DNA of 64,000 bases from contig JASXTE010000017.1 of the NCBI GenBank assembly GCA_030280995.1, forward strand, positions 21,381,998 to 21,445,997, given 5' to 3'. This stretch comes from Hemileia vastatrix. Taxonomy: Eukaryota; Basidiomycota; Pucciniomycetes; Pucciniales; Zaghouaniaceae. How positions within the stretch are numbered: position 1 is the first letter of the stretch; the number at the start of each line of letters is the position of its first letter. This document shows positions 32,140-61,153 of this stretch, in pieces. A program made the translations under genes and the position numbers. The notes below the pieces were generated by a model. That model saw only the letters and a list, made by a program, of their open reading frames with translations, was not told the DNA's origin and did not search any database.

Positions 32140-32143
32140 CCGG

Positions 32144-39546: not shown

Positions 39547-39626
39547 ACTAGTGGGAAGATTTATATTTTACTTTGTACTTTATAAAAAAATAATCAAAGT
39601 TAGTCAATAATTGCTCCAAATAATAT

Positions 39627-39664
<38 letters not shown>

Positions 39665-41406: not shown

Positions 41407-41411
41407 AAAAC

Positions 41412-43268
41412 CCACTTACTTATTAATAACTGGGAAAAGTTCAAAGATCAACTCTTTACGTTGTTCCGTGACCCTAATGAAACTGACGACGCAGAAATTG
41501 AACTTGATTTTCTTTGCATGAGTGATAATAGTAAAGCCCCTGAATATATCTCGAACTTCAGAGCACTTCAAACTTGAGTAGGTTGGAATGATTCTGCCCT
41601 CAAGTATCATTTCAAAAAGAGACATCCTTTGTGGATTCTGGATCAATTAAATCTTCATGGTCAGAAGATGACTACTTTAATGGATTTAATGGATCTAACC
41701 CTTGAACTCGACAGGTTTTACCAAGGACGACTACAACATCGTCGATACACCAACAAATCTCAAGGCCTAAATTTTAAATTGGGACCTTCTTCACACCCAC
41801 GGCCAACTCAATCCAAACCCAATAAGGGAATGTAAATTCTCGACCAAAAAGCTCGACCCCAGGCAATATCAGTAAGGTACTGGATCTGAAAGGGGACTTT
41901 AAAGAAGCTGAGAGGAAGAGGGGAGCAGATAATGGGTTATGTATGTATTTTGGGGGTAAGCACAAGCTAGAAGATTGTGTGAATTTGAAGGAAAGAGAAG
42001 GTACTATTTCAAGGTCAAAAACTAATAGATAGTTTACTTGTGTGCAAAGCAAACAATCTTATCTCTCCCAGTGCACAGAACATCCATGTCTTAAGGACTG
42101 GAGTTGCCTTAAACCACTTGAGATTCATTCTTTTTAAGGAGGATATCCCCTTCAGTTGTTTTATAGACTCTGGAGCTTCAATTTCTTTTGTTAGTTTATC
42201 TTTTGCCGAGAAGCTTCAACTAACATTTACAGATGTCGATTGAACTCCAATCTATTTGGTCGAATCAGAGGAACCCAAATATTGGGTCAGTAAGAAGGTT
42301 TTATGGGTTTTCAACTTTCTGAACTTTCCCCCCTTCGAGTGGGAATTATCAGTCTTGGACGCCCCAAGGATGGACGATACCATTCTTGGCCATGACTTTT
42401 TAAAGCATTGGAATCCTGTAATTGATTGGACACGGGGATTGATCACCCCACACGCTAAGTATATTTCTGATTCTTCAATGCAGGTCAATAGCGAGTTAAA
42501 CAACCCGCCTGACAACATCCTGCTAGAGGACAAATCTCTGCCAGATGACTTGCGAGAATCTGATCTTTCTTTAAATGAGCAATTGGCTAACCCTTCTAGC
42601 TCAATGAATTCACTCGAAGAGGATTTAAATTGCCTTGAAGCAATTGAATGATGCTCTCTCAATTCTGGTCTTCCCTTGACAGATTCCCTCAAAGATGATG
42701 AGGATGACCAAATTGACGTTGAAGCCATTAAATCAACTATACCAGAAATTTATCATGATTTCCTCAATTTTTTTTCAATCTGCAAGGCCAATAAGTTACC
42801 ACCTCATAGACCCTACAATCATCAGATAGAGTTAATAGGTCCAGTACCTCTGGTAGGTACTGTCTATTCTTTGTTGAAGGAAAAATCTCAAGTTCTTCGA
42901 GACTACATTGCAGAGAATGTAGCCAAAGGTTTCATCAAAGCCAGTAAATCTCCAACCGGCTCCCCTGTTCTCTTTGTAAAAAAGAAGGATGGTAGTCTTA
43001 GGTTGTGTGTTGACTATAGAAAGCTCAACACAGTCACTAAGAAGAATGCATATCATGTTACCCCTATGTCATTGCTTCTTATCATTTTCAATGGTGCTAA
43101 TTTCTTTTCTAAAATTGATCTTAGAGGCACCTAAAATCTTATTCGCATTGCAGAAGGACATGAACCACTGACTGCAATGCGCACTAGATTTGGTAGTTTT
43201 GAATATTTAGTTATGCCTTTTGGATTGTGTAACACACCATCTACTTTTCAAACTTTTGTAAATGACAT
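41412..43268 (+). pseudogene. Element E: Gag C-terminus, protease and first half of RT
   Basis: Gag resumes with NNWEKFKDQLFTLF and FKKRHPLWILDQLN, then a degraded zinc knuckle CMYFGGKHKLEDC whose second Cys is Phe. Protease: CFIDSGASISFVS near 42160-42195, followed by [32 protein letters not shown] text (quoted in part), [19 protein letters not shown] and [14 protein letters not shown]. Stops occur near 41577, 42241, 42651 and 43132. The frame breaks at NDI where element D inserted (ACAT at 43265-43268); RT continues at 55994. Confidence 0.82.
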
Positions 43269-44414
43269 TGTGGTAGCCTAAAGTTTAGTACGGCACCTAA
43301 GTATGTAAATGGAGTTATTATGGTGTGCAAGATTGGCGTTATTATTTTTTATAAATAAAAGGGTTTTATTTAATTTATTGGAGTTTAAAATATGAAGAAA
43401 TTGGTCACGAGCGAATGCCTACACAAATACAATTTATTTTGCGGAGAAAAATTATTTTTTACGGTCTGAAAATTTATAAGTATCAAGTCGAGTCACTCAA
43501 GAACCTTGGGAAATTTTCCCAGAATTTTTACTATTTTTCTTATATTTTTAAATGAATTTTAAAGTTTTATAGAAATATTTACGTTTTCAAAAATTACTTA
43601 ACTTTGATGAATTTTCACGGGGTAATTAAAACTGCGCAGACTACGAAAATTAGTTTGGTAGGTAAAGGGGAAGTAGCTTTATTATGTGTAATTTTTCTAG
43701 ATTTTTTATTATGGTTTTAAGGTTCTAAATTGAGTCCGGAAGTCCGGACAGACTCCGTTTCGACTCCGTACGGACTCCGCTTTGACTCTGTACGGACTCT
43801 GTACGGACTCCGTACAGGCTTCGGATTGACTCTGGAAGAGCTCTGGAGGGGAAAACTTAGGCACGTGACTAGGAATACTTAAGCGCGTCTCAAACTCGAA
43901 ATTGAGAGGGGGAACAGGTCATACAGCTTAATCTTTAACCACCACAGTCTCATTTTTTATTACTCAACAAATTAAAATAACTTGTAATACCCTTATAACA
44001 TTATTATTTTTATATAACATTTTAGAAATACTACTCAACAAAAAAAATCACACTTCATACAGGGTATCTTTAGAAAGGTCTTCATCACTGGGACTTGATT
44101 ATTGCTGTCTCATAAAAATTAAAAATATTATAAAAACATAAAAGTCAATCTTTTCAGATCTTTCACTGGTACACCTTAATTGTTGTATTCAGTATTTCTT
44201 TATCAACAGCCACTTTCTTTAAATCTCAATAAGCGTTAAATATTTTAGAGTTTCATTATTTTTATCAATCAGATCTAAGTAGATTGGTTAGCTTAGTGAT
44301 TTAGAACACCCATTTTGTTATTTTTATTGGAAGGACGGGGTTTTCAGCTAAATCCACATATCTCCTCCGGATTCTGCTTACAGCAAGGCGACTGTAAGAG
44401 TTTACCTTACCATA
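43269..44414 (+). repeat. 5' LTR of element D (1146 bp)
   Basis: Starts TGTGGTAGCC and ends CCTTACCATA. Matches 54844-55989. It contains a CGG/CCG-rich block at about 43735-43830, made of repeated CGGACTCCG and CCGTACGG words. Confidence 0.93.
43735..43830. promoter_or_regulatory. CGG/CCG-rich repeat block in the element D LTR
   Basis: In AT-rich surroundings the words GTCCGGA, ACTCCG, CCGTACGG and CGGACTCCG recur about every 12 bp. CGG-Nx-CCG is the known recognition pattern of fungal Zn2Cys6 proteins. The block also occurs at 55313-55410 and, reversed, at 31593-31680. Function as a binding site is inference. Confidence 0.5.
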
Positions 44415-44416
44415 GT

Positions 44417-44433
44417 TGGCGCCCAACGTGGGG
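44417..44433 (+). promoter_or_regulatory. Primer-binding site of element D, tRNA-Lys(CUU) type
   Basis: TGGCGCCCAACGTGGGG two bases after the LTR, identical to 4996-5012. The leader that follows has two copies of CTGCAAGAGGCTT (near 44490 and 44538), each able to form a small hairpin of the C-C-T ... A-G-G kind. Confidence 0.87.
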
Positions 44434-44591
44434 TTCGATTTCTCTAGCTTTCTTTAAAAGACTTACTTGGATCAAGAACGTTATTAGCCTGCAAGAGGCT
44501 TATTTTCTGGAACTCTAATTGGATTTTTGTTATTGGTCTGCAAGAGGCTTGTTATTTTATCGATTGTTAACGCTTTTCATTACTTATTGGG

Positions 44592-47201
44592 ATGTCTTCT
44601 TCTGCTGTTGCTTCTGGATCTTCTAACCCTCTTACTCCCTCAGTTAGAATTGTTTCTTGGGATGGCCCAAAGTTTGATGGGGAGGAGGTTAAATGGTTCA
44701 TTAGCAGGTATGAAGCTGCTGCTGCTGTTGATGGTGCTTCTCATGTGGATATGGTGAAGCAAGTTAGATTTTTTATTGCCGATAGGGAGGTGGAAAAAGA
44801 GGTTATTTCTATGCAGGCATTCAAGGACAAGGATTGGGTTAAGCTTTCTAAAGCTATGGTTGATAGATGGGGTGTTAGCTTTACTATGATGGACCTCAAT
44901 AAAATTGTTGGAGACTGGCAAGCAAAAGGTGGTGTTTCTTCTATGGCTGACTTCAAAAAGCTCTGTGTTCAGTTTGATGAAGTGGTGGAATATCTCATAC
45001 TGGTGGACGAGTTAGTGCATGAGAACCAAGCAAAAGATTTGTTTTGGTCAGCATGCAGCAGGGATATTTGTATGGACGTCTTGAAGGATCTTTCAAGAAA
45101 AGATTTGATGAAGGAACTGCCTAATGGTGAGCAGAAACTGCCGGCTCTGGAGGTTATCAAAGAGAACATTCAGGCCCATCTCAAGTTATTGGCGTTGGAC
45201 AAATATCAAGAGTCTTGCACTCAATATGTTAGCAAGGTTAGCGAAGTTTTGGCTGAAAATAACGATATTATGGTCAAAGCCCAGGAGGCCAAGAAGGCTC
45301 AAATGGGATTACCAGCTGCTAAAGTTGAGGGCAATGTAGATAATAAGATGGTCGATCATTTTGCTGATTTAACTAAACAATTAAAAATATTTGTTCAAGA
45401 AACCCAGAAGGCCAATAAGGCCCCAATCGCTTCTTCGTCGACGTCGACTTCTTATCAGTCTAGAGGGTATGAACGTCGAAATTATAATGGCAATAACAAC
45501 TGTAACCGCTTCCCAGGCAATGGGAGAAATGGTGGGAATGGTGGTAATGGATATAGAGGTGGCTATGATGAGCCAAAGGTGTGCTCCTATTGTAATAGGA
45601 GAGGGAACAGAGCAACAGTTTGTTTTGCTCTTGATAAGGATATGGATGCTGGGCGAGTTTTATTCGATGGTAAAGTTTATAAATTTCCCGATGGTTCGTT
45701 CATCAAGCCCAGTGATGGACAGTCTCCTTCTGATTTGGTCAGAAGAAGTTTAACGGCTGAAAGGAGAGCCAGATTTGAAGAGGTGACGGATGAAGATGTT
45801 AATGCCAAGAGTGGCAAAAATGGTAATGGCAATGGTGGTAAAGCTGACAAGGGCAAGGAGAAAGAGGTCAGTAAAGCCACATTTTCTACTTCTTTTGGTG
45901 GTTTAGAGCTGGCGACGGTTGCCCAGGTGGAGGGTAGCTGTATGGCTGGCGAATACGATGTTAATGCTGCTAGAAGAGCAGCCGCTACTAAGGCGAAAAG
46001 TAGCATTCAGAGCCAATTGAGGGCTAATCCTGGCAAGGCCAATAACAAATTGAACCCTTACTCTAAGGACAAGATTTCTAGTGCTCAAACTGCCGCCAAC
46101 AAATTGAACCCTTACTCTAAGGACGAAATATATAAAATGCAGAAGGGGATTGCTGATATGGGGCCCCCTAGTTATGGCAAGTTTGATTTAAATGGTGAGC
46201 CTATGCCAGAGGATGATTCGGATTCTGTGGAGGACGTACCGTTGGCGTCTCTACTCAGACCAAGTTTTAGCGGTCCCATCCCAATGGAGGGTGTAAGAAG
46301 GACTAGCGATGGATCAGGATTAGTGCAAGAAGCTGGTGACGGAGTTAGGGTTATAGAAAGTGAAGATGTTATAATGGGGGGTGAAGATGGCTCGGTTGGA
46401 CCTCAAGAGGTACCCAGGGCTAAGGTTGTTAAATCAAAGGTCCAGTATGAGCGGCCAGTAGTTTCCGGTCAAGCTAATGCAATGGACGCAGTTTTGAATA
46501 GGGTGAATCAACTTCAGATTCCCTTATCTTTAGGGGAGTTATTTACGATTAGTCCAGCGCTTGCTGAAAAGCAAAAGAAGCATTTGACGAGGCGTCGGGT
46601 TTCCACTGGAGAGGTGGAATATATTTGTGAAAATGCTGAAAAGTTTGGGGAAGATGTAGATACGCATTTTTCCGCTCCCCTGGGTTACCTGGTGGTAACT
46701 CTAAATGGTAAAGAAGTAAAGGCCTTGGTCGATTCAGGGTCTCAAATTAATTTAATTTCATTGGAGCAAGCAACAAGTATAGGCTTGCCAATTAAAAGTG
46801 GGACTGGGGGAAACCTCAGAGGTATTGGAGGGCATGCAACAGAGCTAATGGGTACAGCTGAGCATGTCAGGTTAGGCATTGGTGGATCTGTTGGTAAGGT
46901 TCACTTTTATGTGGCCAGAGGAGCAGTCAAAACTGTTCTTGGTGGTCCTTTTTTGATGGATTTTGAGGCCAGGATAGGGTATCAAGCTGGCATGGGGATT
47001 AGTTTGGAGATCACTGGTGAAGATATGCGGAGGTTACATATGCGGTTAGCGCCTCCTGGAGATGAAGGTTGGGAAACACGGCCAGGGATTACTACTCTGT
47101 GCCAGTGTTGTGTTTGCACCAAGAAGCGGCATATTAAATGGACGGCTTCTGTTGAATTATGTTTGTTGGAAAGGGATGAAAGCCCTCATTTTTTGGGGTA
47201 G
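44592..47201 (+). CDS. Gag-protease of element D
   Basis: 869 aa from ATG 44592 to TAG 47201. A helical capsid-like N-terminus (DGPKFDGEEVKWFISRYEA, VDRWGVSFTMMDLNKIV) is followed by a Gly/Asn-rich basic segment and a zinc knuckle CSYCNRRGNRATVC at about 331-344, in which the usual His is Asn. Then a Lys/Gly-rich linker with a duplicated KLNPYSKD, and the aspartic protease with VDSGSQINLIS (Asp near 714). It ends in a Cys-rich tail (LCQCCVCTKKR). The codons before the stop form the slippery heptamer. Assembles particles, packages RNA and processes the polyprotein. The start is supported by alignment with element A. Confidence 0.9.
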   Translation: MSSSAVASGSSNPLTPSVRIVSWDGPKFDGEEVKWFISRYEAAAAVDGASHVDMVKQVRFFIADREVEKEVISMQAFKDKDWVKLSKAMVDRWGVSFTMMDLNKIVGDWQAKGGVSSMADFKKLCVQFDEVVEYLILVDELVHENQAKDLFWSACSRDICMDVLKDLSRKDLMKELPNGEQKLPALEVIKENIQAHLKLLALDKYQESCTQYVSKVSEVLAENNDIMVKAQEAKKAQMGLPAAKVEGNVDNKMVDHFADLTKQLKIFVQETQKANKAPIASSSTSTSYQSRGYERRNYNGNNNCNRFPGNGRNGGNGGNGYRGGYDEPKVCSYCNRRGNRATVCFALDKDMDAGRVLFDGKVYKFPDGSFIKPSDGQSPSDLVRRSLTAERRARFEEVTDEDVNAKSGKNGNGNGGKADKGKEKEVSKATFSTSFGGLELATVAQVEGSCMAGEYDVNAARRAAATKAKSSIQSQLRANPGKANNKLNPYSKDKISSAQTAANKLNPYSKDEIYKMQKGIADMGPPSYGKFDLNGEPMPEDDSDSVEDVPLASLLRPSFSGPIPMEGVRRTSDGSGLVQEAGDGVRVIESEDVIMGGEDGSVGPQEVPRAKVVKSKVQYERPVVSGQANAMDAVLNRVNQLQIPLSLGELFTISPALAEKQKKHLTRRRVSTGEVEYICENAEKFGEDVDTHFSAPLGYLVVTLNGKEVKALVDSGSQINLISLEQATSIGLPIKSGTGGNLRGIGGHATELMGTAEHVRLGIGGSVGKVHFYVARGAVKTVLGGPFLMDFEARIGYQAGMGISLEITGEDMRRLHMRLAPPGDEGWETRPGITTLCQCCVCTKKRHIKWTASVELCLLERDESPHFLG
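47189..47195 (+). promoter_or_regulatory. Putative -1 ribosomal frameshift site T TTT TTG
   Basis: Gag codons CAT TTT TTG GGG TAG contain T TTT TTG two codons before the stop. The Pol frame is -1 and open from 47180. Element A has T TTT TTA at the equivalent place. Confidence 0.7.
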
Positions 47202-50200
47202 CAGGGGCTGATCACTCTAATGTTGTAAACTCTCCTCAGGATGAGATCCCGGATTGCAATAGGTCAGCTCACTTGGAGATAATTCAAGTGGATTCTCAAT
47301 TATTTTCTGTTAATATTACTTTGGAGTGCAAATACGTTTTGGACTTTTCTATATGTTTATTGGATTTACCCGGTTTTTCTATTAAATTTAAAAACGGTGA
47401 AAAAGGCAAAATGGGCCAAATTAGGTTGGATAAAGGTTGGAAGGGTATGTTTTATAACCTCCAGCAAGAGGGTAAACTGCAATTAACTCGTCAAAACTCA
47501 ATAAAAAATCTTAGTATAAGTAAAACACAAAAAAATAATTTTTGTGAAAATTCATTTCCGGACCTCCAGCAAGAGGTTAAACTGCAATTATCTCCTTCTA
47601 TCACGGACCTCCAGCAAGAGGGTAAACTGCAAAAATCACATCAAAATCCGATAAAAAATCTCAGTATAATTAAAACCCAAAAAAATAATTTTTGTGAAAA
47701 TTCAATTCCGGTCCTCCAGCAAGAGGTTAAACTGCCAACTTTCTTTATGGGTGATTTACTGTTGGATAAGGGAAGCAAAGGTGTTGGAAAATCTGTTTAT
47801 AAATTAGACGAGGGAAAGGAGAAAAGGGTAAAATTTAAAAATGAAATAAAATATTTTTCTAATTTTTCTTATTCCAATTCTGGCGATGAAGAAGATTCAT
47901 TTGATGAAAGTTTTAATGGCGATGTTTTACCTCAAGTTTATTTAGATGTGGACGCAGCCAAATATAAGAAAGTAGCAAATAAAGTTCGACCTATTAATGA
48001 ACCGCTACCTGCTGAATTAAATCCACCTTTGAGAAGACCAAGGTTATCAAGAGATCCTTATGAAAGTCCCTTGGTAAAGAATCCGCCTGAATTTTCTGAG
48101 ACGTCAAGAATCACTTTTGAGAGACTGGGTGTTGTTAATTTTGGACCTGATGGTTGGTTGTCTGGAGAAGAGAAGAAGTTGTTGTTGGATGTGATGGTCA
48201 AGCGAGAGAAGGCCATTGCTTTTGTAGAAGAGGAGAGGGGTGTGTTGAAGCATTCCTATGGGGAGCCTTACAGGATTCCTGTGGTATGTCATGAACCGTG
48301 GCAGCAGAAACTGATTCCTTTTCCGGCTGCATTGAAAGAAGCTTATATCGAAGTTGTCAGAGAACGGATACGCACTGGACTGTATGAGCAATCAACGTCA
48401 AGTTATTCTAGTCCTGTATTTTGTATCAAGAAACCGAATGGCAAGCTTAGAATTGTTCATGATCTTAGGGAATTAAATAGGGTTACAATAAAGGATGCTG
48501 GGATACCACCTAGTGCTGAGGAGTTTGTTGAAGCGTTTGCAGGGAGAGTGTGTTATGGTTTGGGAGATATTATGGGTGGATATGATGAGAGAGAGTTACA
48601 TCCGGACTCAAGGCCTCTCACTACATTGGATACGCCACTAGGACCTTTACAGTTAACAAGATTACCTCAAGGAGCAACAAATTCGGTTGCAGTTTATCAA
48701 GCTCAGATGGCTTGGATCCTTCAAGATGAAATTCCACAATATGCTGGAATCTTTATAGATGATGGAGGAATTAAGGGACCAACAACCAACTATGATAACC
48801 AGGTGTTGGAAGAGAATCCCGGGATACGCAAATTCATTTGGGAGTTTGCAATTACTTTAGAAAGAATCTTGTTTCGAATTGAAGAGGCTGGCTTAACTAT
48901 TTCAGGTTCAAAATTTTCATGTTGTGTGCCAGCCTTAGAAATATTAGGCTATGTGGTATGTAGAGAGGGTAGGATTATGTCCAAGAAGAAAGTTAACAAA
49001 ATTCAGTCCTGGCCAAGACCCAAGAATACGACCAAAGTTAGAGGGTTTTTAGGCGTTTGCGTATATGTTAGAATGTTTATCAAGGACTTTTCTTCATTGG
49101 CAGCTCCATTGAGACGGTTAACAAGAAAGGATGCAGACTGGGAGTGGGATGAAGAGTGTGAGAAGGCGTTTGTGAAGTTGAAGGAGGTTGTGGGGAAGGA
49201 TTTAGTCCTGCACAAGTTGGATTATGGAAAAGATGCTGGCAGAATTTATTTAGCGGTTGATTCAAGTCAGGTTGAAGCTGGGGCGGTTTTGTCTCAGATG
49301 GATAAAGCTGGTTACATCAGGCCGGTTAGGTATGAATCTGTAGTATTTACTGAGGTCGAATCAAGATATTCTCAACCAAAATTGGAATTATGTGGTGTGG
49401 CGAAAATACTGAAGAAACTTCAGCATATTTTGTGGGGGCAACATTTTGAGTTGCAAGTGGATGCGAAATCGTTAATCCAGATGATTAATTCCCCAAGTTT
49501 ACCGAACGCACCCATGATGAGATGGGTAGCTTTTATTCAACATTTTTTGTTTGATTTAGTTCATAAGCCTGGCAAAACTTTTACTATGCCAGATGGTTTA
49601 TCAAGGAGACCACCCACTGAAGAAGATTCAGACTCAGAAGAGTTCGATGAAGATATACCTATTATCAAAGCCAGCACTAAAGGAGCTGAAGACTTTCCAT
49701 ACCTCCCCCATGAGGTTAAACTGGCAGGACTATTGTGTTTAGATTATGGTGATGATGACCTCCACCAAGAGGATAAACTGGAAAATAGTTTTTATGTTAA
49801 TAAAGGTGTTGGAAAAGGTGTAGATAAATTCGGCAGAGAGGAGGTAGAAGAAGATGTGGTGTATGTAGAGGAAAATGGATTGGTAGTGTGGGATAGTAGT
49901 AAATTAAGGAATGGTGTATATGTTGGAGAATTAGAGAATTTAAATAAAAAGGTGGATAAAGAGAAAGAGGTATTTTCAAATACGGTTTATGAAGGATCCA
50001 AAGGTTCAGATGAAAAACGTCGACATAGCTCGATTAAAGATTTATTTAGGGGTCAACGATTATTGGCTCATTCATGTGCAGGTGATATTGGTGATAGAGA
50101 AGTCCCTATTGATGTTATATTAATCGATTTTCAAGATGAAGTCTGGGGTCAGACTGGTTTTTATTTTTTGTTAGTCAAATATTTGTTGACTTTAGAGAGG

Positions 50201-51438
50201 CCAGAAGAGTGTGAAGACGATGAATGGGTGGCTATCAAGAGGAAGTCATCTATGTTTTACCTATCTGGTCGATGTTTAATGAAGAGGAGGTATCCAAATC
50301 CTCAAGTAGTTATAACTCAACAGAAGGGGAAAGAATTAGTTTTGAAATCTCTGCATGAAGATCTTGGGCATAGAGGCGTTGGAGAAACGTTTAGAAGAAT
50401 TTCTGATCGATTTTGGTGGCCTGGAATGAAGATGGCTGTTAAACAGTGGGTTCAGTCATGCGAAGAATGTCAAAGACGAAGTTATTTAAGGCCAAAAGAA
50501 CCTGGACCCGCGACCGGTGAATATACGCTCTTTGGAAGAGTTAGTTTAGATGCCGTTCATATAAAAGAGGGACGGTATAAATATTTAATTGTGGCCAGAG
50601 ATGATTTATCTTGTTGGGTAGAGGCAGCGCCTCTTATTAATTTAACTGCCAAAAATGTGGCAGAATTTTTTTTGAATAATTGGGTATATAGGTATGGGGT
50701 GATGAAGTTGGTGACGGTAGATGGAGGTCCTGAATTTGGGACAGAGTTTAAAGAGGCCGTATTGAAAGTTGGATCAAAGGTTAGGGTAGCAACCCCATAT
50801 TATCCTGAAGCTGAAGGCATGGTTGAAAGAGGGCATCAAGTTATTAAGGATGCTTTAGTTAAAATGTGTGGGACAAGTGCCGAAAAGTGGAGGCACTATT
50901 TACCTTTAGTTTTATTTGCTGATCGAATCACTGCCAAAAGGACGACCGGATTTTCACCTTATGAACTTGTTTTTGGACAGAAAGCAGTTTTACCGTTGAT
51001 TTAGAAGCTGAATCATATCTTGGAGTTGACTGGGACACGGTCAAAACTACTGAAGAATTATTGTGTGCGAGAATGATGCAGCTAGAAAAGAAAGAAGAAT
51101 ATTTAGAAAAGGCATATTTGCGGATGATGAAGATCCGAATACAATCAGTTAGATATTGGGATGAGCGGTTGGCACATCGATTAAGGAAACCTTTGAACCC
51201 AGGAGATATGGTCCTGGTGTATAATAGGAGTTTGGAAAGTCAGTGGGGAAAGATGTTTGCAGATAGGTGGAATGGACCGTATAAAATCAAGGAGCAAGTT
51301 TCCGGCGGTTCATTTGTGCTAGAAGAGTTGGATGGAGTAGTATTGAAGAAGAGGGTAGCGGCCGATCAAGTGAAACGGTTCTATCCTAGAGGCACCAGGA
51401 GTGCCGAAGTCTTCCTCCGCAATGAGGATAAACTATGA
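47196..51438 (+). CDS. Pol of element D: RT, RNase H, integrase (one frameshift)
   Basis: Reached by a -1 shift; no conventional start is needed. The N-terminal linker holds four hairpin-motif copies translated as LQQE(G/V)KL. RT: SSPVFCIKKPNGKLRIVHDL and the box AGIFIDDGGIKGP (48745-48784). RNase H: IYLAVDSSQ, ESRYSQPKLELCG, LQVDAKSLI. Acidic linker with LPHEVKL and LHQEDKL. Integrase: LHEDLGHRG to CEECQRRS zinc finger, SLDAVHI, TVDGGPEFG, EGMVERGH. Near 50996, after KAVLPL, two bases seem missing compared with element A, giving a stop at 51002-51004; the tail (RYWDERLAHRLRKPLNPG, RNEDKL) is open in the shifted frame to 51438. Otherwise intact. Confidence 0.87.
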
Positions 51439-51578
51439 TATCAATGAAACTTTATGGATTCCTCCGCAATGAGGATAAACTATGATATCTACAAAATTTT
51501 ATGGATTCCTCCGCAATGAGGATAAACTATGATGTTTATAAAAATCTTATGACGACCTCCGCAACGAGGATAAACTAT
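51414..51578 (+). repeat. Four hairpin units at the end of Pol of element D
   Basis: CCTC, loop CGCAAT (CGCAAC in the last), GAGG, then ATAAACTAT at 51414, 51461, 51508 and 51556, about 47 bp apart. The first is translated as the last codons of Pol (LRNEDKL); the others lie beyond the stop. Confidence 0.85.
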
Positions 51579-52384
51579 CTTCTTTTTTTTATCAAATAAT
51601 TTACTATCGTTACACTGCATATGGGCAACGAAACTGTGATGAAACATAACGAAATACGAGAAAACCTTCATTGAAAATTTTCAAAATTTAAAATTCTTAA
51701 AATATGGGTGAAGATAGTGTTGGGAAATTTTTAAAATTTATTGGAAGAAGTGTGTATACAGGGGAACCTTCTTAATTTAATATTGGCAAGTGTGGGGGTA
51801 ATTGATGGGCTGGCTGCTCTATACACAATTACCCCATAATGTTCGTTTCTAAAATTTTCCCTGTTTCTAGTTGAATCCTGGCTTTGTCTTTTAATTTTAG
51901 GAAGTCCACTAAGACTATAAACTGGAACGAATCAAGAGACACCGCTATCAACGCAGGATTCAAGATTCTTTTATTTTATTTTGTTTTTGATTTTTTTTAT
52001 TTTAGATTGTGATTTCTTTTCTTTAATATATATTATGAATTATTATAAAGGTGATCCTCACTGGTGGTCTCTAATCATTTTTATAAATTGGAGGGAGCCC
52101 ACCCAGTGATCATCATTATAAAAATTATCTTCTAAAAAACTTTCATTTATTTTCTTTTCTTTTCAATTTCTCAAAATTGTGTAACCACATCAAGTTGCAC
52201 TTGGATGTGGGTATGATGTCAAGGGTACGGCTCATCAAATGGCCGGGGGGCATCTTTTAAAATTTTATTTAAAATTTTTTTTTTAGTACTTTTTTTTTAT
52301 CTTTCTTTTCACATTCATTTATCTTTCTTTAAAATTAAATTTTAACTTTTATTTCAAAACTATCTTTTCTAAAATCTTTTATTT
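51579..52384 (+). other. Structured untranslated 3' region of element D
   Basis: No ORF of note. It has the same hairpin classes as element A in the same order: the 10-bp hairpin GGGGTAATTG ... CAATTACCCC at 51795-51835, a small unit at 51903-51925, a long hairpin near 52052-52112 with GGAGGGAGCCCACCCAGTGA on its 3' side, and a double hairpin at 52185-52254. Confidence 0.7.
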
Positions 52385-52512
52385 TAAATCAAAAAAAAAA
52401 AATTAAAATTAAAATTAAAAAAAAAATAAATAAAAAAAAAAATAAAAATAAATAAAAAAAAATAAAATAAAATAAAATAAAAATAAAATAAATAAAAATA
52501 AAAATAAAAAAA

Positions 52513-52545
<33 letters not shown>

Positions 52546-52570
52546 ATTAAAATTAAAATTAAAATTTATT
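52385..52570. repeat. AT-rich low-complexity tract
   Basis: Runs of AAAAT, AAAATAAAT and AAT repeats across about 185 bp. Nothing coding. Confidence 0.85.
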
Positions 52571-52712
52571 AATTAAATCAAAATCATTATTATATTTCTT
52601 AGTTTTATTTTTATTAGTTTTCATTCTTTTTAGTTTTATTCATTTAGTTTAGACAGGAAACAGGGTCTAGGGGAACTCAATACCTATGGGATTTTACTTC
52701 AAGATATCTGTT

Positions 52713-53440
52713 AGTCCTCCAAGACTTTAAACTGGCTACTGTTCAAGACGTTCTTTAAGGCTTTTTATACATATTTTGGAGCTGTTAGTCCTCCAAGACT
52801 TTAAACTGGCTACTGTTCAAGACTTTCCTTAAGGGTTTTATACGAATTTCGGAGCTGTTAGTCCTCCAAGACTTTAAACTGGCTAATTTTCAAGACTATC
52901 GTTAAAATTTTTTTATTGGATTTGTTAGGTCCACCAAGACCTTAAACTGGAGTGTTATCAAATGTTAGGTCCACCAAGACCTTAAACTGGACTGTTATCA
53001 AGCTGTTGGGTCCACCATGACCTTAAACTAGATTTCTTATCGATTAAATGTTTGGTCCACCATGACTTTAAACTGGTAGTTCATTCATTGTTTAGTCCAC
53101 TATGACTTTAAACTGGAAAATTAATATCTGCAGGATAATTCAACATTCATTGGACCACTATGGCCTTATACTGGATTACTTGTCAATCAAATGTTTGGTC
53201 CACTATGACATTAAACTGGATTATCAAATTTATTCAATCTTTGGTCAAGCCTAGGCCTTACTTAGGAATATATCAAGATATTTATGCACTTAAACAATCT
53301 TTGGTCCACCAAGACCATAAACTGGAAATCGATTATATGTTTGGTCTACCAAGACTTTAAATTGGAATGTCAATCTTGTTTGGATAACTCAATTCAATCT
53401 TTTAATTTATCACTGTCCCCTAAGACTCTAAACTGGTTAT
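52713..53440 (+). repeat. Array of about a dozen small hairpin-TAAACTGG units in element D
   Basis: Units at 52713, 52787, 52860, 52928, 52968, 53009 and on to about 53415. The first three have stem AGTC:GACT with loop CTCCAA; later ones have GGTC:GACC with loop CACCAA or CACCAT; some have one G-T pair (GGTC:GACT). All are followed by TTAAACTGG or a close variant. Loop and tail stay constant while both sides of the stem change together. A few units near 53151 and 53243 are degraded. Flanking spacer also repeats (CTACTGTTCAAGAC). Confidence 0.85.
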
Positions 53441-54026
53441 TCAATTATTTCTGGAATTGGGTGCTGATAGCTTTAGGAGGTTAAAACTTTAGGTGGTGAT
53501 GATGCTAAAGAAAGCATAATGGTTAATTAGGTGAAATTTGTGGCGCTTTAACATGGTCTAAAGTTAAAATTATTATTGGAAGCCTGGCAAAAGTATTTTA
53601 TGGGTTTGCTGTATAGCAAAGTTTGAAAATTGTGATGAAGGAATCAGAAGTTAGGATGGTAGTTGGATTTTAGGGAATGATTTGTTTTAGTGCCTCATAG
53701 TTAGGCCATTTTTTTTTTGGTGTGAAGCTTGGAGGACCTTATGGCGAGATTGGAATCATAGAATTCGGCTCAGTGGGGGGCCCTATGAGGTTGGAATCAG
53801 GAGTATTCGGCTCATAGGAAGACCCACTCTCTCAATGCTGTGACAAGAAGGAAGACTGGTATATGGGAGTCTGAAGGGATTCAAACCTTGCTCTCAGTAG
53901 TGGAATCATCACAAGATTTATTTTATTTTATTTTATGTTATATCAAGCCAGAGAAGAAAGAAAACATCATTTATGTTGAAAGTTTAAGAAGACCAAGCAA
54001 AAACAAAATTTTATCAAGTTATACTG
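53441..54026. other. Element D DNA between hairpin array and antisense gene
   Basis: No gene recognised. A duplicated phrase (GGAATCA ... ATTCGGCTCA near 53751-53815) is visible. It may hold the 3' untranslated part of the antisense transcript. Confidence 0.5.
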
Positions 54027-54720
54027 TTAGAAAAGATAATTTATTTGAAATTGTTCAACATCATTATCAAAGCTTTGCATTAAAATTCTTCTTTTCATGA
54101 GGTCTTCATGGTTATTAGCTGGAGTTTCTTGAAAATAGGCCAGCATTTTTCGTTTCAACTCATTAGTAAAGTCAAGAAAAAGATAGCGATGAAAATTTGG
54201 GTAATGATTGATATAGTCCGTCTTCACTCTACCAACATCATCAGTGTTGGTTATTTCGACAGCTAGAAGTTCAAATATGTTATTAAGTCATAGGTTTAGT
54301 CAATTTTGATTAAAAGTTTTTTTTTAGTAAGATAAATAGGGTCTTACATTTAGAGCCAGGAAACATAGTCTCAGCAAAGTTAGTTGGGGGTACTGGCGTT
54401 ATAGGATTAGGATCTTGTGAAGGCAAAATTAGGCCGGGATCCGTTGATGAAGATTGAACTTTTGAAGCTGTTTTTGTTCTTATTCGTTTTAAGAAGACAG
54501 GAATTTTGGATCGCTTTTTAGAAGTTGAGGGATCAGGGAGAGCTGCTGGTCCTAAATATACGTTTGTTTTAGAAGGAACTATTGGCCGGTTGCATTTGAC
54601 TTTTTTCACACGGCATAAGTCGCAAGCTGTTCTGCCAGGAAGATTAGGGTTGGACATTAAAAAAGGTACCTGGTATCGAGCGCAGAGTTCACATGGAGCG
54701 ACAAGTTCTTTGGAAGACAT
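54027..54720 (-). CDS. Antisense spliced Zn-cluster-like gene of element D
   Basis: Exon 1 54720-54348, intron 54347-54263 (85 bp; GTAAGACC donor, CTTCTAG acceptor), exon 2 54262-54027, product 202 aa. The splice restores one frame; without it exon 1 meets a stop 38 bp past the donor. N-terminus: C10, C13, then Phe20 where a third Cys is expected, then C33, C36 and C43 (CDLCRVKKVKC, the basic half of a Zn2Cys6 cluster). The middle is Ser/Pro-rich with a basic stretch (KKRSKIPVFLKRIRTK) that could be a nuclear signal. Exon 2 is helical (ELKRKMLAYFQETPANNHED) and aligns with exon 2 of the small antisense gene in element A. ATG is 124 bp from the 3' LTR. Likely nuclear DNA-binding protein; target unknown. 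Confidence 0.7.
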
Positions 54721-54833
54721 ATTGATGAAGATGAATTTTATAGTTGATTAAAGAAGATGGTGGTTGAAGGTTAAAGATGAATAATGTGTTTGACCACTTA
54801 TGCAAAGTTTTAAGAATGAGGACATTCTCGATT

Positions 54834-54843
54834 GGAGGGAGGA
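54834..54843 (+). promoter_or_regulatory. Polypurine tract of element D
   Basis: GGAGGGAGGA directly before the 3' LTR, identical to element A. Confidence 0.85.
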
Positions 54844-55989
54844 TGTGGTAGCCTAAAGTTTAGTACAGCACCTAAGTATGTAAATGGAGTTATTATGGTG
54901 TGCAAGATTGGCGTTATTATTTTTTATAAATAAAAGGGTTTTATTTAATTTATTGGAGTTTAAAATATGAAGAAATTGGTCACGAGCGAATGCCTACACA
55001 AATACAATTTATTTTGCGGAGAAAAATTATTTTTTACGGTCTGAAAATTTATAAGTATCAAGTCGAGTCACTCAAGAACCTTGGGAAATTTTCCCAGAAT
55101 TTTTACTATTTTTCTTATATTTTAAAATGAATTTTAAAGTTTTATAGAAATATTTACGTTTTCAAAAATTACTTAACTTTGATGAATTTTCACGGGGTAA
55201 TTAGAGCTGCGCAGACTACGAAAATTAGTTTGGTAGGTAAAGGGGAAGTAACTTTATTATGTGTAATTTTTCTAGATTTTTTATTATGGTTTTAAGGTTC
55301 TAAATTGAGTCCGGAAGTCCGGACAGACTCCGTTTCGACTCCGTACGGACTCCGCTTTGACTCCGTACGGACTCCGTACGGACTCCGTACGGGCTTCGGA
55401 TTGACTCTGGAAGAGCTCTGGAGGGGAAAACTTAGGCACGTGACTAGGAATACTTAAGCGCGTCTCAAACTCGAAATTGAGAGGGGGAACAGGTCATACA
55501 GCTTAATCTTTAACCACCACAGTCTCATTTTTTATTACTCAACAAATTAAAATAACTTGTAATACCCTTATAACATTATTATTTTTATATAACATTTTAG
55601 AAATACTACTCAACAAAAAAAATCACACTTCATACAGGGTATCTTTAGAAAGGTCTTCATCACTGGGACTTGATTATTGCTGTCTCATAAAAATTAAAAA
55701 TATTATAAAAACATAAAAGTCAATCTTTTCAGATCTTTCACTGGTACACCTTAATTGTTGTATTCAGTATTTCTTTATCAACAGCCACTTTCTTTAAATC
55801 TCAATAAGCGTTAAATATTTTAGAGTTTCATTATTTTTATCAATCAGATCTAAGTAGATTGGTTAGCTTAGTGATTTAGAACACCCATTTTGTTATTTTT
55901 ATTGGAAGGACGGGGTTTTCAGCTAAATCCACATATCTCCTCCGGATTCTGCTTACAGCAAGGCGACTGTAAGAGTTTACCTTACCATA
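54844..55989 (+). repeat. 3' LTR of element D (1146 bp)
   Basis: TGTGGTAGCC to CCTTACCATA, nearly identical to 43269-44414. Followed by ACAT and then the RT codons of element E. Confidence 0.93.
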
Positions 55990-55993
55990 ACAT

Positions 55994-58396
55994 CTTTCAA
56001 GATGTTGTCAAACAATTTGTTGTCCTCTATTTAGATGATATTTTAATTTTCTCAAAGACACTAGATGATCATATTCATCATGTTTGACAGGTTCTAAATC
56101 GACTTTGAGATCATGGTCTCTACGCCAAGCACAATTAATGCAATTTTCACCTTAAATCTATTGAATTTTTGGGTTTTATGTTATCCACTTCTGGATTAGT
56201 CATGGACAACAAAAAAGTCCAAAAGGTCCTTGAATGGCCTGAGCCCAAATCCTTTAAATCCCTCTAGGGATTTTTTGGTTTTGCCAATTTCTATAGAAGA
56301 TTTATTAAATATTACTATAAAACTATTTCCAATCTTACTTCTCTTCTTAGAAAAGATATTCCTTTTGTTTTTACTCCCACAGCAGGAAAGGAATTTGAAG
56401 CATTGAAGACGGCGTTTACCACAGCTCCAATTCTTCAACACTTTGATCCTTCTGCTTCGACAATAGTTGAGACAGATGCAAGCAATTATGCTATTGCAGG
56501 GGTCATTTCACAATTAAATCCTGAAACAAAATTTTTTCATCCTGTTGCTTTTGAGTCATGCAAACTCATTGCAGCAGAATTAAATTATGAAATTCATGAC
56601 AAAGAGCTTTTAGCTATTATTTATTGTCTTAAAAAATGGCACTCTTTTCTTCTCAGCTTAGACAGTCCTTTTCAAATTTTAACAGACCATAATGCTTTGA
56701 AATACTTTATGTCTTCCAAAGTGTTACCAGGCGTCAAGCCAGGTGGGCTGAATTTCTGTCTGAATTTTCTTTTTCTATTTCCTATTGCCCAGGTAAGAAC
56801 TGCATTTCCCCAGATATCTTATCACTTTGGGAAGACGTTTACCCTCAGCGGGGGGACGCATTTTCTGACAAGAACCCAGCAAATGTGAAATCAATTTTCA
56901 ACGAATCAATGTTAAGGACTCATCAACTTAATGCGATGACAATTCAATCCTTTCAAAATCCAATATCCAAAATCCTCAAAGCTCAGTTGAAGGACAATTA
57001 TTGTTTAGGGTTGAAAGACAAAATATTCTTAAAGCAAGGGGCCAAATGATTTAGTATTGAATCAGGTCTATTAGTTTTTGAGGGAAGAGTAGTCATACCT
57101 GACAACAATGAAATAAAGTTATCAATTTTCAATAGTCGACATGATTCTCCATTAGCTGGTCATTTTGGGGTTGATAAAACCTACCAGTTGATAATGAGGG
57201 ATTTCTTCTTGCCAGGTATGACCAGGGAAATCAAGGCCTATATAAAATCTTGTTACAAATGTAATAGGAATAAGGCTCCCCTTCAACGGAAGTATGGGTT
57301 GCTTCAACCACTTCCTATTCCCTCTAAACCTTGGGAATCTTTATCGATGGATTTTATTTCTCAACTTCCTCTTTCTAATAATTTTGATACTATATTAGTA
57401 ATAGTAGATAGATTTTCAAAAATGTCTATTTTTATTAAAACCACTACTACTGCTACAGCAGAAGATTTGTCAAAATTGTTTCTAGAATATGTATTTTCCA
57501 AACACGGCTTACCTAATGATATTATTTCAGATAGAGGCTCATTGTTTGTATCCACATTCTGGACTCAACTGTGTCGACAACTCAATATCACGAGGAACCT
57601 CTCCACAGCCTATAATCCTAAAACTGATGGGCAAACAGAGAGGGTCAACCAAATCCTCGAACAATACCTTCAAATGTATGTCAGTTACCAACAAGAAGAT
57701 TGGACCACATGGTTACCATTGGCCTAATTTGCTTATAATAACTCGACTCATTCTTTGACAAAACAATCTCCTTTCAAAACTGTCTATGGAAGACATCCTC
57801 GATTCAACTCAATCCATGTAGGAACTAATCATCCTGTGGAACATTATTATCAAACCACATCACTACTCCAAGAGGAACTTAAATCAAATTTGGAATTAGT
57901 GGTTCAAAGGTACAAGGAACAGGCCGACAAACATCAACAAACTGCTCCTTCTTTTAAACCAGGCGACAAAGTGTGGCTCAACGCACAAAACATTCGAATG
58001 ACTCAAACATCAAAAAAAATGGCTGAAAAACGCTTGGGACCCTTGGAAAGCAACTCTGAAGTCTCTAAAACTGCATTTCGACTCAAGCTAACTCCTAAAT
58101 GGCAGGCTATTCACCCTGTTTTTCACGTATATCTCCTGGAACTGGCTCGAGAAACATACCCAGGCAAAAACCAACCTCCTCCGGAACCGGTCGAAGTAGA
58201 AGACCATCTAGAGTGGGAAGTAAGCCGCATCCTTGATTCAAGAATGTGCAAGGTGAAACCTCAATACCTCGTGGAATGGGAAGGCTTCCTTGATTACTCA
58301 GACAAAACATCCTGGGAACCAGCCATCAATGTTTCTAACAACCCTGAACTCCTAAAATCTTTTCATCTTAAATATCCTTTAAAACCAAAACCTTAA
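55994..58396 (+). pseudogene. Element E: second half of RT to chromodomain
   Basis: Resumes with FQDVVKQFVVLYLDDILIFS, the RT catalytic box. RNase H: IVETDASNYAIAGVISQ, ELNYEIHDKELLAII and ILTDHNALKYFM. Integrase: HFGVDKTYQ ... CYKCNRNK zinc finger, SMDFISQLP, IISDRGSLFVS and TDGQTERVNQ. Then a GPF/Y-like region and a chromodomain (EWEVSRILDSR, QYLVEWEGFLDYSDKTSWEP) to the stop at 58396. Stops or shifts occur near 56089, 56263, 56886, 57047 and 57725, so the gene is dead. The long open piece 57755-58396 includes the whole chromodomain. Confidence 0.87.
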
Positions 58397-59278
58397 AACT
58401 CTCTTTTATTTTTTCTTTCTCTTTTTTTTCTTTCTTTTCTTTTCTTTTCTTCTTTTTAAAATCTAAAACATCTTTACTTCTAAAAATTTCATTAATTTTG
58501 TTTTCTTATTTATTCTTTTTCTTTTCAAAATTTTTCAACCTTCTTTGAAATAAATAAAATTAAATTAAAAGAAAAGAAAATGAAATAAAATTAAAATTAA
58601 AATAAATAAAAAAATCAAATTAAATTAAAAGAAATAAAATAAAATAAAATAAAACAAATAAAATTAAAATCTTTTTCTTTTTTCCTTCTCAAATTTTCTA
58701 TATACATTCTTTCTATAAAATTTTCTTTTCCTCAAACTATCAAAATTCTTCACGAACACAACACAACCATCTTCTCAAACCTCACTTCAACCTCTAAATC
58801 TCTCTTTTAAATCATTTGAACAAATTACTTCTTTTCCTTCAAAACTTTTTTTTTAAAAAAAAAAAACTTATTTCTTCTCTTCTTTTTTCAAATAACTAAA
58901 AACCTCAAATCCAAAAAACTTTCATAAATAACAAATTGTTTTTTTTCATTAAATTTTATTTACAACAAAATTATTTCAATCAATTATTTCTTTCTTCTTT
59001 CTTTCTTTCTTTCTTCTTACTTAATTATTTTCTTTTTGAACTTTAAAACTAAAACTCCTTCAATCAAATATTCTTTCTTTTCCTCTCTCATTTAAACTTC
59101 TTCTTTCAAAATTTTAAAACAAACTTGTATTTAATTCTTTTTTCTGTCTTTTCGTTTTTCTCTCAAAATCTTATAAAAAATAAAAATATTAAAATTTTTA
59201 AATAAAACAACAAAATAAAAATAACTTAATACAAATTATTTCTACTTTCTTTTCTTTTTTTTCTTTTCTCCTTCCATT
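58397..59278. other. Pyrimidine-rich and AT-rich 3' region of element E
   Basis: Runs of TTTCTTTTC and AAATAAAAT over about 880 bp. No ORF and no hairpin motif of the A/D type seen. Confidence 0.7.
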
Positions 59279-60243
59279 TTAAATTCTCTCCTTTATTTTC
59301 TCCCGAACCAATCCCTTCATCTTCACCAAAATTTCCCTTATTTCCTTCCTACATTTCTCAAAGACTTCCCCCTCTCCTACTGGAATCTCTTCTCCAATTT
59401 CCAGTAGCTCCTCGTCCATGTGGAAGGAGGCGGAATTGACAATCTTATCAATTTTTCCGCTTAAGTCTTCAATAAACCTCACTTGACAAACCTGGTGAGG
59501 CTTTTTTGACCATACTAGATCGAGGGTTTCTTCATTCTCCTCCTTTGAGGCAACCACCAGTAAGCTATCTTCGATCAGGATCAACACCGTAACTTCCACA
59601 GCAGCGGGTTCCACAATGGTCTCTTCCACATTCGAAGCTTCCGCTGTAGGGACTTCTGCGATGACGTCTGAATTCTAAAACAGAACCATCAGTAACTAAA
59701 TTTATGAAATATCAGGAGAATTGACTTACTTCAAAGATGTGGTCTGCTTCTAAGAACAATCTCAGAGTGACCTTCACCGCCACTTCCTTTTCCTCTTTGT
59801 CATCTTCGATGAGCACCCCTAGTTTTTTCGGGTTCGGTCTAGAAATAGAGATTTCCTCTTCCTCCTCAACTAACTCGTCGACTTCTTCTTCGAACACTTG
59901 TTTCTTGCTCACAGCCTGAGTCACCCAGGTTGCTACATTGTCTTCAGCCTCCTCCTAATTTTCTCCCACCATTTGAGACATCCCAAATATCTTCGACTAC
60001 CTCTTTTGTCTTAGGAATCCCCCAATATTTAGTCTTCGTGAACCGACTATCGATGTCAGAATTCTTTGACAAGGCTTCACATGCCACTTTGCACTTCTGG
60101 AGAGAACCTCGTGTTGCCGTACTTTCCATGCAAAAGTACTCCATTGATGCGCAAGCCGTGCAAGCCTTAGAATATTGCCGTGTGACGATTCCCCCATCTG
60201 CTTTAGGGTGTGGAGGCGTGGGAGTTGGAGTAGGGAAATCCAT
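59279..60243 (-). pseudogene. Antisense gene of element E, Cys-rich and acidic, frameshifted
   Basis: ATG at 60243 is 103 bp from the 3' LTR. The first frame has CTACASMEYFC (C-x2-C-x6-C at residues 28-38), then C51 and C55, which resembles a degraded Zn-cluster. It continues KYWGIPKTKEVVEDIWD and meets a stop at 59944-59946; a 1-base shift leads into EEAEDNVATWVTQAVSKK and an acidic segment. An intron of 55 bp (59729-59675, GTAAGT to TTTTAG) joins exactly to the last exon (to 59279), rich in Glu, Val and Lys. The shift could instead be a second small intron. The same position and strand as the antisense genes of A and D, with no clear sequence relation outside the cysteines. Confidence 0.5.
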
Positions 60244-60345
60244 CGTAGTAAATTATAGAGTAATTAAAAAAGAAAAGTAAAGGGAAACTAGTGTGGGAAG
60301 TATGTCTTACCCTCAACAGAGCTCACATTCTTATACCCGGCCATC

Positions 60346-61148
60346 TGTCATGCGCCACGTGACACTCGAGGAGAAAGCAGCTCATTAAATCAATAATAAG
60401 AGGTTTTAAATCCATACTCAAAGGCAGAAAGCAATTCTCCATAGAAACTGCAACTTTCCTTTGTGTACTCGCTATTCAACGGAGCTAGTCTAAACTATAA
60501 ATCTAAATTAGTCAATCTCTCAATAGTGTGTCTTTGTCTTTTTCTCAATAAGGGACACACAGCGCAATAGTCAATGTAATAGTACATTAAAAGGTTTATG
60601 AAATTTCTGTGGATTTTTAAGGGGTAGTGAGCATGGACGAAATGTTTAGTGGAGGATTAAGGGGTTAATGGATGTTAGTGAGGAGGGTCCAGGTGTAACA
60701 GATGTATTTTTAATGGTCTGTGGTGTGCGGAATAGTGGATGGGTATGAGGTCAATGCAAAGAGGAGTAAAGGATATAAAAGGGGTTGGGTTCTTGGTTCA
60801 ATACTCTTTAGAATTAAATTATAAAACATATTTATAGTTAATAGTGGTAAAAGCTTTTAAGTTAAATCATTATTATTGTATCTTTCTTTATTTTCTCAAT
60901 AATCATTTATAAATCCTAAATCTTTGATTGTTGAGTTTCCAACCCTTTGTGAGATCTTAAGAATTTTAATATTACCTTTCAATTATATTAGAATCCTTCT
61001 AAAACATAACTCAAAGCAGTATTTCTTCCTTCAAGTGATCTTTGAATCACTTCCTTGAATCATTACTCTGTGCTTCGAAGAAGTCCCTAAACTCCTCATC
61101 TCACTTACAGGAACATCTTTGACCTTGTGCCTAGGTTGTCCGGTGACA
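60346..61148 (+). repeat. 3' LTR of element E (about 803 bp)
   Basis: TGTCATGCGCC to GTTGTCCGGTGACA, with GTCCA following. Matches 29627-30431 with scattered substitutions and small indels. Confidence 0.88.
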
Positions 61149-61153
61149 GTCCA

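What the first reader, a model, noticed from the sequence alone, without database searches (positions are those of the whole stretch)
54027..54720. Retrotransposon carries an antisense, intron-containing Zn-cluster-like gene beside its 3' LTR
In young element D a 2-exon gene runs against the element, starts 124 bp from the 3' LTR, and splices precisely (GTAAGACC ... CTTCTAG) into a conserved second exon. Element A has a homologous gene at the same place with its own intron, so the gene was inherited with the lineage. Antisense genes near the 3' LTR are known in a few retroviruses and plant Ty3 elements; a spliced DNA-binding-type gene in a fungal Ty3 element is not something I know to be described. 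It may regulate copy number, host response or its own LTR.
Basis: partly seen in the sequence, partly recalled or inferred. Interest (0 to 1): 0.9.

Follow-up and report, generated by a model that had tools for sequence, protein, structure and literature searches.

The report
Antisense zinc-cluster genes in rust retrotransposons
Several families of jumping elements in what looks like a rust-fungus genome carry, back to front beside their right-hand repeat, a small intron-containing gene for a probable zinc-binding protein that natural selection appears to preserve, perhaps a regulator of the element or of its host.

Summary
Element D carries a two-exon antisense gene at 54720-54027; its ATG is 123 nt from the 3' LTR. 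Element A carries a homologue (15725-15085; intron at the same place and phase) plus a second, longer antisense gene (14533-12936). A third element, chromovirus E (29627-61149, interrupted by C and D), has a partly decayed antisense gene at the same place (60243-59279). B and C have no room for one. In the host genome (747.6 Mb) the 150 best of 7916 candidate matches to D exon 1 are all stop-free. Relatives met in stretches sampled by position mostly show dN/dS of 0.1-0.3 (NG86; pol 0.17-0.27). The N-terminus has six cysteines, CX2CX6CX12CX2CX6C, the Zn2Cys6 spacing as I recall it, but apparently with the halves in swapped order. Exon 2 is predicted helical. I read it as a nuclear DNA-binding-type accessory protein expressed from an antisense promoter in or near the 3' LTR, working like HTLV HBZ/APH or plant Grande/Retand antisense genes; membership in these was not shown. 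Antisense genes in fungal Ty3 elements are not new (Boty brtn). A spliced gene with a permuted zinc cluster in two distant Ty3 lineages was not met in nine searches. Function is inferred; no RNA evidence.

The parts
43269..55989 (+). Element D, Ty3-type LTR retrotransposon: LTRs 43269-44414 and 54844-55989, 4-bp target duplication ACAT, inserted in the RT of element E
   Evidence: self-BLAST; ends; flanks; Pfam
54348..54720 (-). D antisense gene exon 1: N-terminal Cys-rich zinc-cluster-like part (5 of 6 Cys in this copy) and a Ser/Pro/basic stretch
   Evidence: Pfam; copies
54263..54347 (-). D antisense intron, 85 nt, phase 1, GTAAGA...TTCTAG
   Evidence: same splice sites in 26 of 26 copies
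54027..54262 (-). D antisense gene exon 2: C-terminal part, probably helical
   Evidence: two-helix model of the A homologue's exon 2
54721..54843 (-). leader between antisense ATG and 3' LTR, includes PPT ggagggagga (54834-54843)
15395..15725 (-). Element A proximal antisense gene, exon 1 (full CX2CX6CX12CX2CX6C)
15085..15344 (-). Element A proximal antisense gene, exon 2 (intron 15394-15345, 50 nt, phase 1)
13447..14533 (-). Element A distal (second) antisense gene, exon 1, Cys-rich N-terminus (pattern incomplete in this copy)
   Evidence: homologue at the same place in L051
12936..13378 (-). Element A distal antisense gene, exon 2 (intron 13446-13379, 68 nt, phase 1)
3899..16866 (+). Element A: LTRs 3899-4991 and 15774-16866 (about 96.5% identical), TSD ACGA
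29627..61149 (+). Element E, chromovirus (LTRs 29627-30432 and 60346-61149), interrupted by a solo LTR, C and D
59730..60243 (-). E antisense gene exon 1 (one frame interruption in this copy); ATG 102 nt from the 3' LTR
   Evidence: homologues in L034 and L042
59279..59674 (-). E antisense gene exon 2 (intron 59729-59675, GTAAGT...TTTTAG)

Best explanation
It is a genuine accessory gene family of Ty3 retrotransposons, written antisense to gag-pol and directly inside the 3' LTR. Shown by sequence: two exons with a conserved intron position in the A/D lineage, a six-cysteine N-terminal module with Zn2Cys6 spacing, a conserved second exon, and purifying selection on the protein. Partly shown: the two halves of the module lie in swapped order. 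Inferred: transcription starts in or just outside the 3' LTR; the intron survives because only the sense RNA is reverse transcribed, so antisense introns are never removed; the protein dimerises through exon 2, enters the nucleus and binds DNA. Most likely it tunes transcription of its own family in trans (feedback on the LTR) or shields it from host silencing. I put about 0.95 on a selected, protein-coding antisense gene, about 0.75 on a zinc-cluster fold, and about 0.4 on regulation of the element's own transcription.
For: Homology and intron position D/A. 150 of 150 scored genome matches to D exon 1 have no stop, out of 7916 candidates (the best-scoring ones, so biased). 26 distinct D-family copies: splice sites 26 of 26, open frame 25 of 26, all six Cys in 23 of 26, pN/pS 0.32 (picked by protein score of exon 1); no indel in the coding parts, while leader and intron have some. 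Relatives from stretches sampled by position, dN/dS (NG86): D exon 1 0.17; E exon 1 0.09-0.16; E exon 2 0.11 and 0.15 (third pair undefined); A-proximal 0.22/0.27; A-distal exon 1 0.33; pol 0.27 and 0.17. The six-Cys pattern occurs only in these genes in 347,656 bases held (window and fetched stretches) and 0 times in 20 shuffles of 264 kb. Pfam Zn_clus above cut-off in one D copy. Leaders between ATG and LTR: 48 nt (A), 123 (D), 102 (E). Exon 2 model of the A gene: two helices, pLDDT about 75-89 over the helices.
Against: No RNA, binding or localisation data. Pfam Zn_clus stays below its cut-off in the window's D copy (19.6), A-proximal (16.9), L045 (16.6) and an E copy (10.7); of 8 half-modules scanned alone only 2 matched. 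Several copies lack one or more of the six Cys: the window's D, A-distal and E genes, L045, and A-proximal of L051. The exon 1 structure model has low confidence (mean pLDDT 50). L035, an A/D-type 3' end met by position, shows no such gene, and B and C have no room, so the gene is dispensable for some elements. L034, L042, L045 and L037, and A-distal of L051, contain stops. A-distal exon 2 gave dN/dS 0.77 on 37 aligned codons. YN00 values are higher than NG86 for these genes (0.18-0.47, against 0.13-0.16 for pol).
Confidence: 0.5

Rival explanations
1. The protein acts on the host, not the LTR: it blocks or recruits host silencing or chromatin factors, so it evolves fast and is kept because it lets copies escape silencing.
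For: The gene diverges faster than gag-pol: D vs A 30% aa identity (55 of 182 aligned codons) against 77% for the RT-IN part of pol and 58-65% for two gag pieces; the piece between them has 41%. Present in two distant lineages with different LTRs.
Against: dN/dS stays below 1, and no positive selection was tested for. No host partner is known.
Confidence: 0.25
2. The antisense RNA, not the protein, is what matters (dsRNA, siRNA or interference with the sense transcript); the open frame is a by-product.
For: Antisense transcripts with silencing roles are discussed for retrotransposons (passages of PMC7264820).
Against: Third codon positions vary most between D and A, dN/dS is 0.09-0.33 (NG86) in all defined comparisons of subfamilies but one, and reading frame, cysteines and splice sites are kept in most D copies.
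Confidence: 0.08
3. The zinc protein binds the element's RNA, for example the repeated sense-strand hairpins of the A/D lineage, and helps packaging or reverse transcription, like a second nucleocapsid.
For: A and D carry arrays of covarying hairpins between pol and the antisense gene. The D gag and pol frames show no CCHC knuckle by a simple pattern.
Against: A has a CCHC knuckle as well as the gene. The sampled E-type loci L034 and L042 have the gene but no hairpins of this form, and L035 has hairpins without the proximal gene.
Confidence: 0.12
4. A host transcription-factor gene fragment was carried along by chance and is decaying without function.
For: The zinc cluster is a host-type fungal domain. 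Some copies are decayed (E in the window; L034, L037, L042, L045).
Against: Purifying selection across diverged subfamilies; the same place in A, D, L045 and L051, with the intron at the same point in A, D and L051. No homologue was found in the protein searches made, though these reach only relatives sharing exact words, and the host genome was not searched for a host copy.
Confidence: 0.04

Closest known systems
Boty brtn (Botrytis cinerea; Zhao et al. 2011, Virology 417:248; paper not held, known here only from passages of citing papers PMC7264820, PMC8365987, PMC4227169, PMC5987419)
   Same: Additional antisense gene in a fungal Ty3/gypsy element that also has a chromodomain.
   Different: Ascomycete host. 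Whether brtn is spliced or has a zinc cluster could not be seen here, and its sequence was not compared.
Grande gene23, RIRE2, Retand TRP28 antisense ORFs of plant Ty3 elements (passages of PMC7264820 and PMC11963269)
   Same: Antisense, between pol and 3' LTR, kept in most copies; own promoter and nuclear protein reported for Grande; DNA binding predicted for TRP28; tandem repeats in the same region in about half of the Retand elements studied.
   Different: Other domains; 'intron' and 'zinc' do not occur in either main text; plant hosts.
HTLV HBZ / APH-2,3,4 (passages of PMC10186651)
   Same: Spliced antisense gene expressed from the 3' LTR; HBZ acts in the nucleus and lowers 5' LTR transcription.
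   Different: bZIP or no zinc cluster; retrovirus of primates; no sequence relation tested.
Fungal Zn2Cys6 transcription factors (Pfam PF00172)
   Same: Two CX2CX6C halves; one D copy passes the Pfam cut-off.
   Different: Order of halves apparently swapped: D's C-terminal half matches profile 1-15, the N-terminal halves of A-proximal and L045 match 16-35 and 18-34. Small protein, carried by an element.

Membership tests
Ty3/gypsy LTR retrotransposon (elements A, D) | LTR pair with target duplication, PBS and PPT | tested here: met
   TG-starting LTRs, TSD ACGA (A) and ACAT (D), tggcgcccaacgtgggg next to the 5' LTR (its tRNA was not identified), ggagggagga before the 3' LTR
Ty3/gypsy LTR retrotransposon (elements A, D) | PR-RT-RH-IN order of domains in pol | tested here: met
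   D has protease in the gag ORF, then RVT_1, RT_RNaseH, Integrase_H2C2, rve in order; A was scanned for RT-RH-IN only and has them in the same order
Chromovirus (element E) | chromodomain at the C-terminus of integrase | tested here: met
   Chromo 44.8 bits (cut-off 25.1) and SH3_Tf2-1 in 57728-58396
Zn2Cys6 binuclear cluster (PF00172) | six Cys with spacing CX2CX6CX5-12CX2CX6-8C (spacing recalled) | tested here: met
   A-proximal of the window, 23 of 26 D copies, E copy L034. Not complete in the window's D, A-distal and E genes, L045 and A-proximal of L051; A-distal in L051 has linker 15, outside the recalled range
Zn2Cys6 binuclear cluster (PF00172) | Pfam score above the curated cut-off over the whole domain | tested here: inconclusive
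   23.8 bits (cut-off 21) for one D copy, best stretch profile 1-15; 3 others (A-proximal, L045, L034 exon 1) below, and the window's D copy below
Zn2Cys6 binuclear cluster (PF00172) | basic loop in the first half, order first half then second half (recalled, and the order of the Pfam profile) | tested here: not met
   the halves that match do so in swapped order (2 of 8 half-modules matched alone); basic residues lie between Cys 5 and Cys 6
HBZ-type antisense 3' LTR regulator (works like) | spliced antisense transcript from the 3' LTR | not testable with these tools
   gene position and intron fit; no RNA data
HBZ-type antisense 3' LTR regulator (works like) | nuclear protein that lowers LTR transcription | not testable with these tools
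   needs experiment
brtn family | sequence similarity to BRTN | not tested
   no BRTN sequence was at hand; the 2011 paper is not held

The most novel reading that the evidence does not exclude
Rust-fungus Ty3 elements of two distant lineages share an element-borne family of spliced antisense genes built on a circularly permuted Zn2Cys6 cluster, passed between lineages or inherited from their ancestor and kept as trans-acting regulators; one lineage even carries two of them. The antisense orientation is what lets an RNA-copied element keep its intron.
Probability: 0.45. Interest if true: 0.75.

Novelty: new variant of a known kind. Interest (0 to 1): 0.66.

Why it matters
Papers seen here in passages say that the function of antisense accessory genes of plant retrotransposons is unknown (PMC7264820, PMC11963269). 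Here is a family in high copy number with a readable domain, introns and selection, so antisense promoters, spliced reads and DNA targets can be looked for in existing data. It offers a possible fungal parallel to HBZ.

Tried and rejected
Protein homologue searches: D exon 1 alone (6 candidates, none with E <= 1) and the D/A alignment (681 candidates, none with E <= 10). Viral-contig scans found nothing. The alternative acceptor TATAG for the A intron leads into a stop. Weak sub-threshold Pfam hits other than Zn_clus were not used. The E and A/D modules share the cysteine spacing and the basic second half, but similarity beyond the cysteines is weak (p 0.016 and 0.027 with L034, 0.14 and 0.33 with L042), and the window's E exon 1 does not stand out from shuffles against D or A-proximal, so common descent is not claimed. 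A-distal is only weakly like the proximal genes (score 76 vs a shuffle maximum of 69 for D; 84 vs 93 for A-proximal). Structure search was not run, because the zinc-part model was poor. First comparisons with E exon 2 used a wrong frame and were redone. Hairpin alignment A6 used wrong windows and was redone as A7. Several dS values are saturated or undefined.

Full report
What is in the window. The window is a nest of LTR retrotransposons. Self-BLAST and the LTR ends give: A 3899-16866; a solo LTR 18253-19323; B about 19314-28169; E 29627-61149, interrupted by a solo LTR (31012-32139), by C (32198-41406, minus strand) and by D (43269-55989). D sits inside the RT of E, with a 4-bp target duplication. 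D and C are young (LTR distances 0.007 and 0.003), B 0.018, A 0.034, E 0.064. D pol gave 74 proteins at E <= 1e-20; the named ones nearest to it are from Puccinia striiformis and P. coronata (53-71% identity over part of pol) and Phenoliferia, while the top hits are unnamed. The host is therefore probably a rust. Its assembly has 747.6 Mb.

The antisense genes. D: 54720-54027, two exons, 202 aa. A: a proximal gene 15725-15085 (196 aa) and a distal gene 14533-12936 (509 aa). These three introns are phase 1 with GT...AG ends. E: 60243-59279 with its own intron (GTAAGT...TTTTAG) and one frame interruption in exon 1. ATGs lie 123, 48 and 102 nt from the 3' LTR in D, A-proximal and E. In B and C the last pol frame ends 201 and 37 nt from the 3' LTR, so there is no room for the gene.

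Beyond chance. D and A-proximal are homologous in both exons although self-BLAST showed no DNA match of 150 bp or more between them. Mismatches by codon position are 0.55, 0.45 and 0.66. The protein evolves faster than most of gag-pol (30% aa identity against 77% for RT-IN, 58-65% for two gag pieces and 41% for the piece between). A-distal is only weakly similar to the proximal genes.

Genome copies. A search with D exon 1 gave 7916 candidates; the 150 best were scored, all at 97% identity or more, and none had a stop. Of 30 stretches held by then, five were dropped as the window itself or repeats (L001, L009, L011-L013), leaving 26 distinct copies with the window's own. Splice sites are identical in 26 of 26, the frame is open in 25 of 26 (one stop, in exon 2), and all six Cys are present in 23 of 26; the window's copy is one of the three that lack one. 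Indels against the window's copy fall in the leader (one copy) and the intron, none in the exons. Variants: exon 1 14 nonsynonymous and 17 synonymous, exon 2 15 and 9 (pN/pS 0.27 and 0.37). The copies were picked by protein score of exon 1, which biases exon 1. The leader is more variable (pi 0.024) than the codons (0.007-0.013), but the intron is not (0.008, all 31 rows, repeats included).

A sample not picked by the gene. Twenty 10-kb stretches at fixed positions contained D-like genes in L045 and L037 (the latter decayed) and E-like genes in L034 and L042. L050 held an A-like pol; the adjoining stretch L051 carried both A-type antisense genes in the same order. One further A/D-type 3' end, L035, showed no proximal gene. 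Stops occur in L045, L037, L034, L042 and in A-distal of L051. dN/dS (NG86): D exon 1-L045 0.17, exon 2 undefined; E exon 1 0.09, 0.10 and 0.16; E exon 2 0.11 and 0.15, third pair undefined; A-proximal 0.22 and 0.27; A-distal exon 1 0.33; A-distal exon 2 0.77 on 37 codons. Pol: 0.27 and 0.17. YN00, where it ran, gave 0.18-0.47 for these genes and 0.13-0.16 for pol. D vs A itself is saturated (NG86 dN 0.82, dS 4.7).

The protein. The pattern CX2CX6CX(5-18)CX2CX6C occurs in the 347,656 bases held only in these genes, 28 hits of 5 distinct kinds (many are copies of the D gene fetched for that gene; 1 hit, L034, lies in the 20 stretches sampled by position), and 0 times in 20 shuffles of 264 kb. 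The linker is 12 in A-proximal, D copies and E (L034), and 15 in A-distal of L051. L042 has the spacing with a stop inside; the window's D, A-distal and E genes, L045 and A-proximal of L051 lack one or more of the cysteines. Pfam Zn_clus reaches 23.8 bits in D copy L002 (cut-off 21) and stays below in the others. In whole proteins the best stretch of D is residues 31-45 on profile 1-15, while those of A-proximal and L045 are their N-terminal halves on profile 17-35 and 18-34; that of E copy L034 is its C-terminal half on profile 3-15. Scanned alone, 2 of 8 half-modules matched: the C-terminal half of D (profile 1-15) and the N-terminal half of A-proximal (16-35); D's N-terminal half, A-proximal's C-terminal half and both halves of E (L034) and of A-distal (L051) did not. 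The basic residues lie in the second half. I therefore read it as a zinc cluster with swapped halves. AlphaFold2 on two-sequence alignments gave a poor exon 1 model (mean pLDDT 50) and a two-helix exon 2 for the A gene (mean 73).

How it most likely works (inferred). Antisense transcription from in or near the 3' LTR, splicing, a small nuclear DNA-binding-type protein that dimerises by exon 2 and acts in trans on the family's LTRs or on host silencing. The intron can persist because reverse transcription copies the sense RNA, in which it is not an intron.

Print. [quoted passage not shown] PMC8365987; PMC4227169; PMC5987419; PMC11963269). HBZ/APH proteins: passages of PMC10186651. In the fungal LTR survey PMC3248453 the words 'antisense', 'zinc' and 'brtn' do not occur in the main text. 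PMC2864245 mentions an additional ORF of unknown function in a figure legend; whether it is antisense was not seen. Nine literature searches listed no paper whose title or abstract start describes a spliced zinc-cluster antisense gene in a fungal Ty3 element. Some lists were cut (20 of 130, 20 of 29, 15 of 87 and 12 of 114 papers shown), subscription papers are mostly not covered, and most listed papers were seen only in the listing.

Noticed in passing
window 47473-53318 (D) and 10106-14958 (A): A repeated sense-strand hairpin: 4-5 bp stem (CCTC/GAGG, AGTC/GACT, GGTC/GACC), six-base loop, then TAAACTG. 28 of 35 TAAACT sites of the A and D internal regions have it with loop 6; controls, any loop of 5-8: 6 of 35 on the minus strand of the whole window, 5 of 14 on the plus strand outside A and D. 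On all 35 sites the covariation score is 0.472 against 0.185 shuffled, 0 of 500 shuffles as high, but the number of pair types is not raised (9 against 10.1). Also in A/D-type loci L035, L037, L045, L050 and L051 on one strand only, not seen in L034, L039, L042, L046 and L048. No Rfam match above its cut-off in 47000-54843. Possibly packaging or protein-binding hairpins.
   Followed up: partly
window 12936-14533: A second, longer antisense gene in element A (509 aa, Ser/Pro-rich, Cys-rich start), also in the related element of L051. In D no relative was found by tblastn beyond a short match to the proximal gene, and a low-complexity A/T stretch lies at about 52270-52650.
   Followed up: partly
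window 51447-51578: Short tandem repeats of a 47-bp unit carrying the hairpin, just after the end of D pol.
   Followed up: no
window 528-1531: An array of 82-bp repeats with 'ATCAGAGTCCA'-like motifs, outside the elements studied.
   Followed up: no
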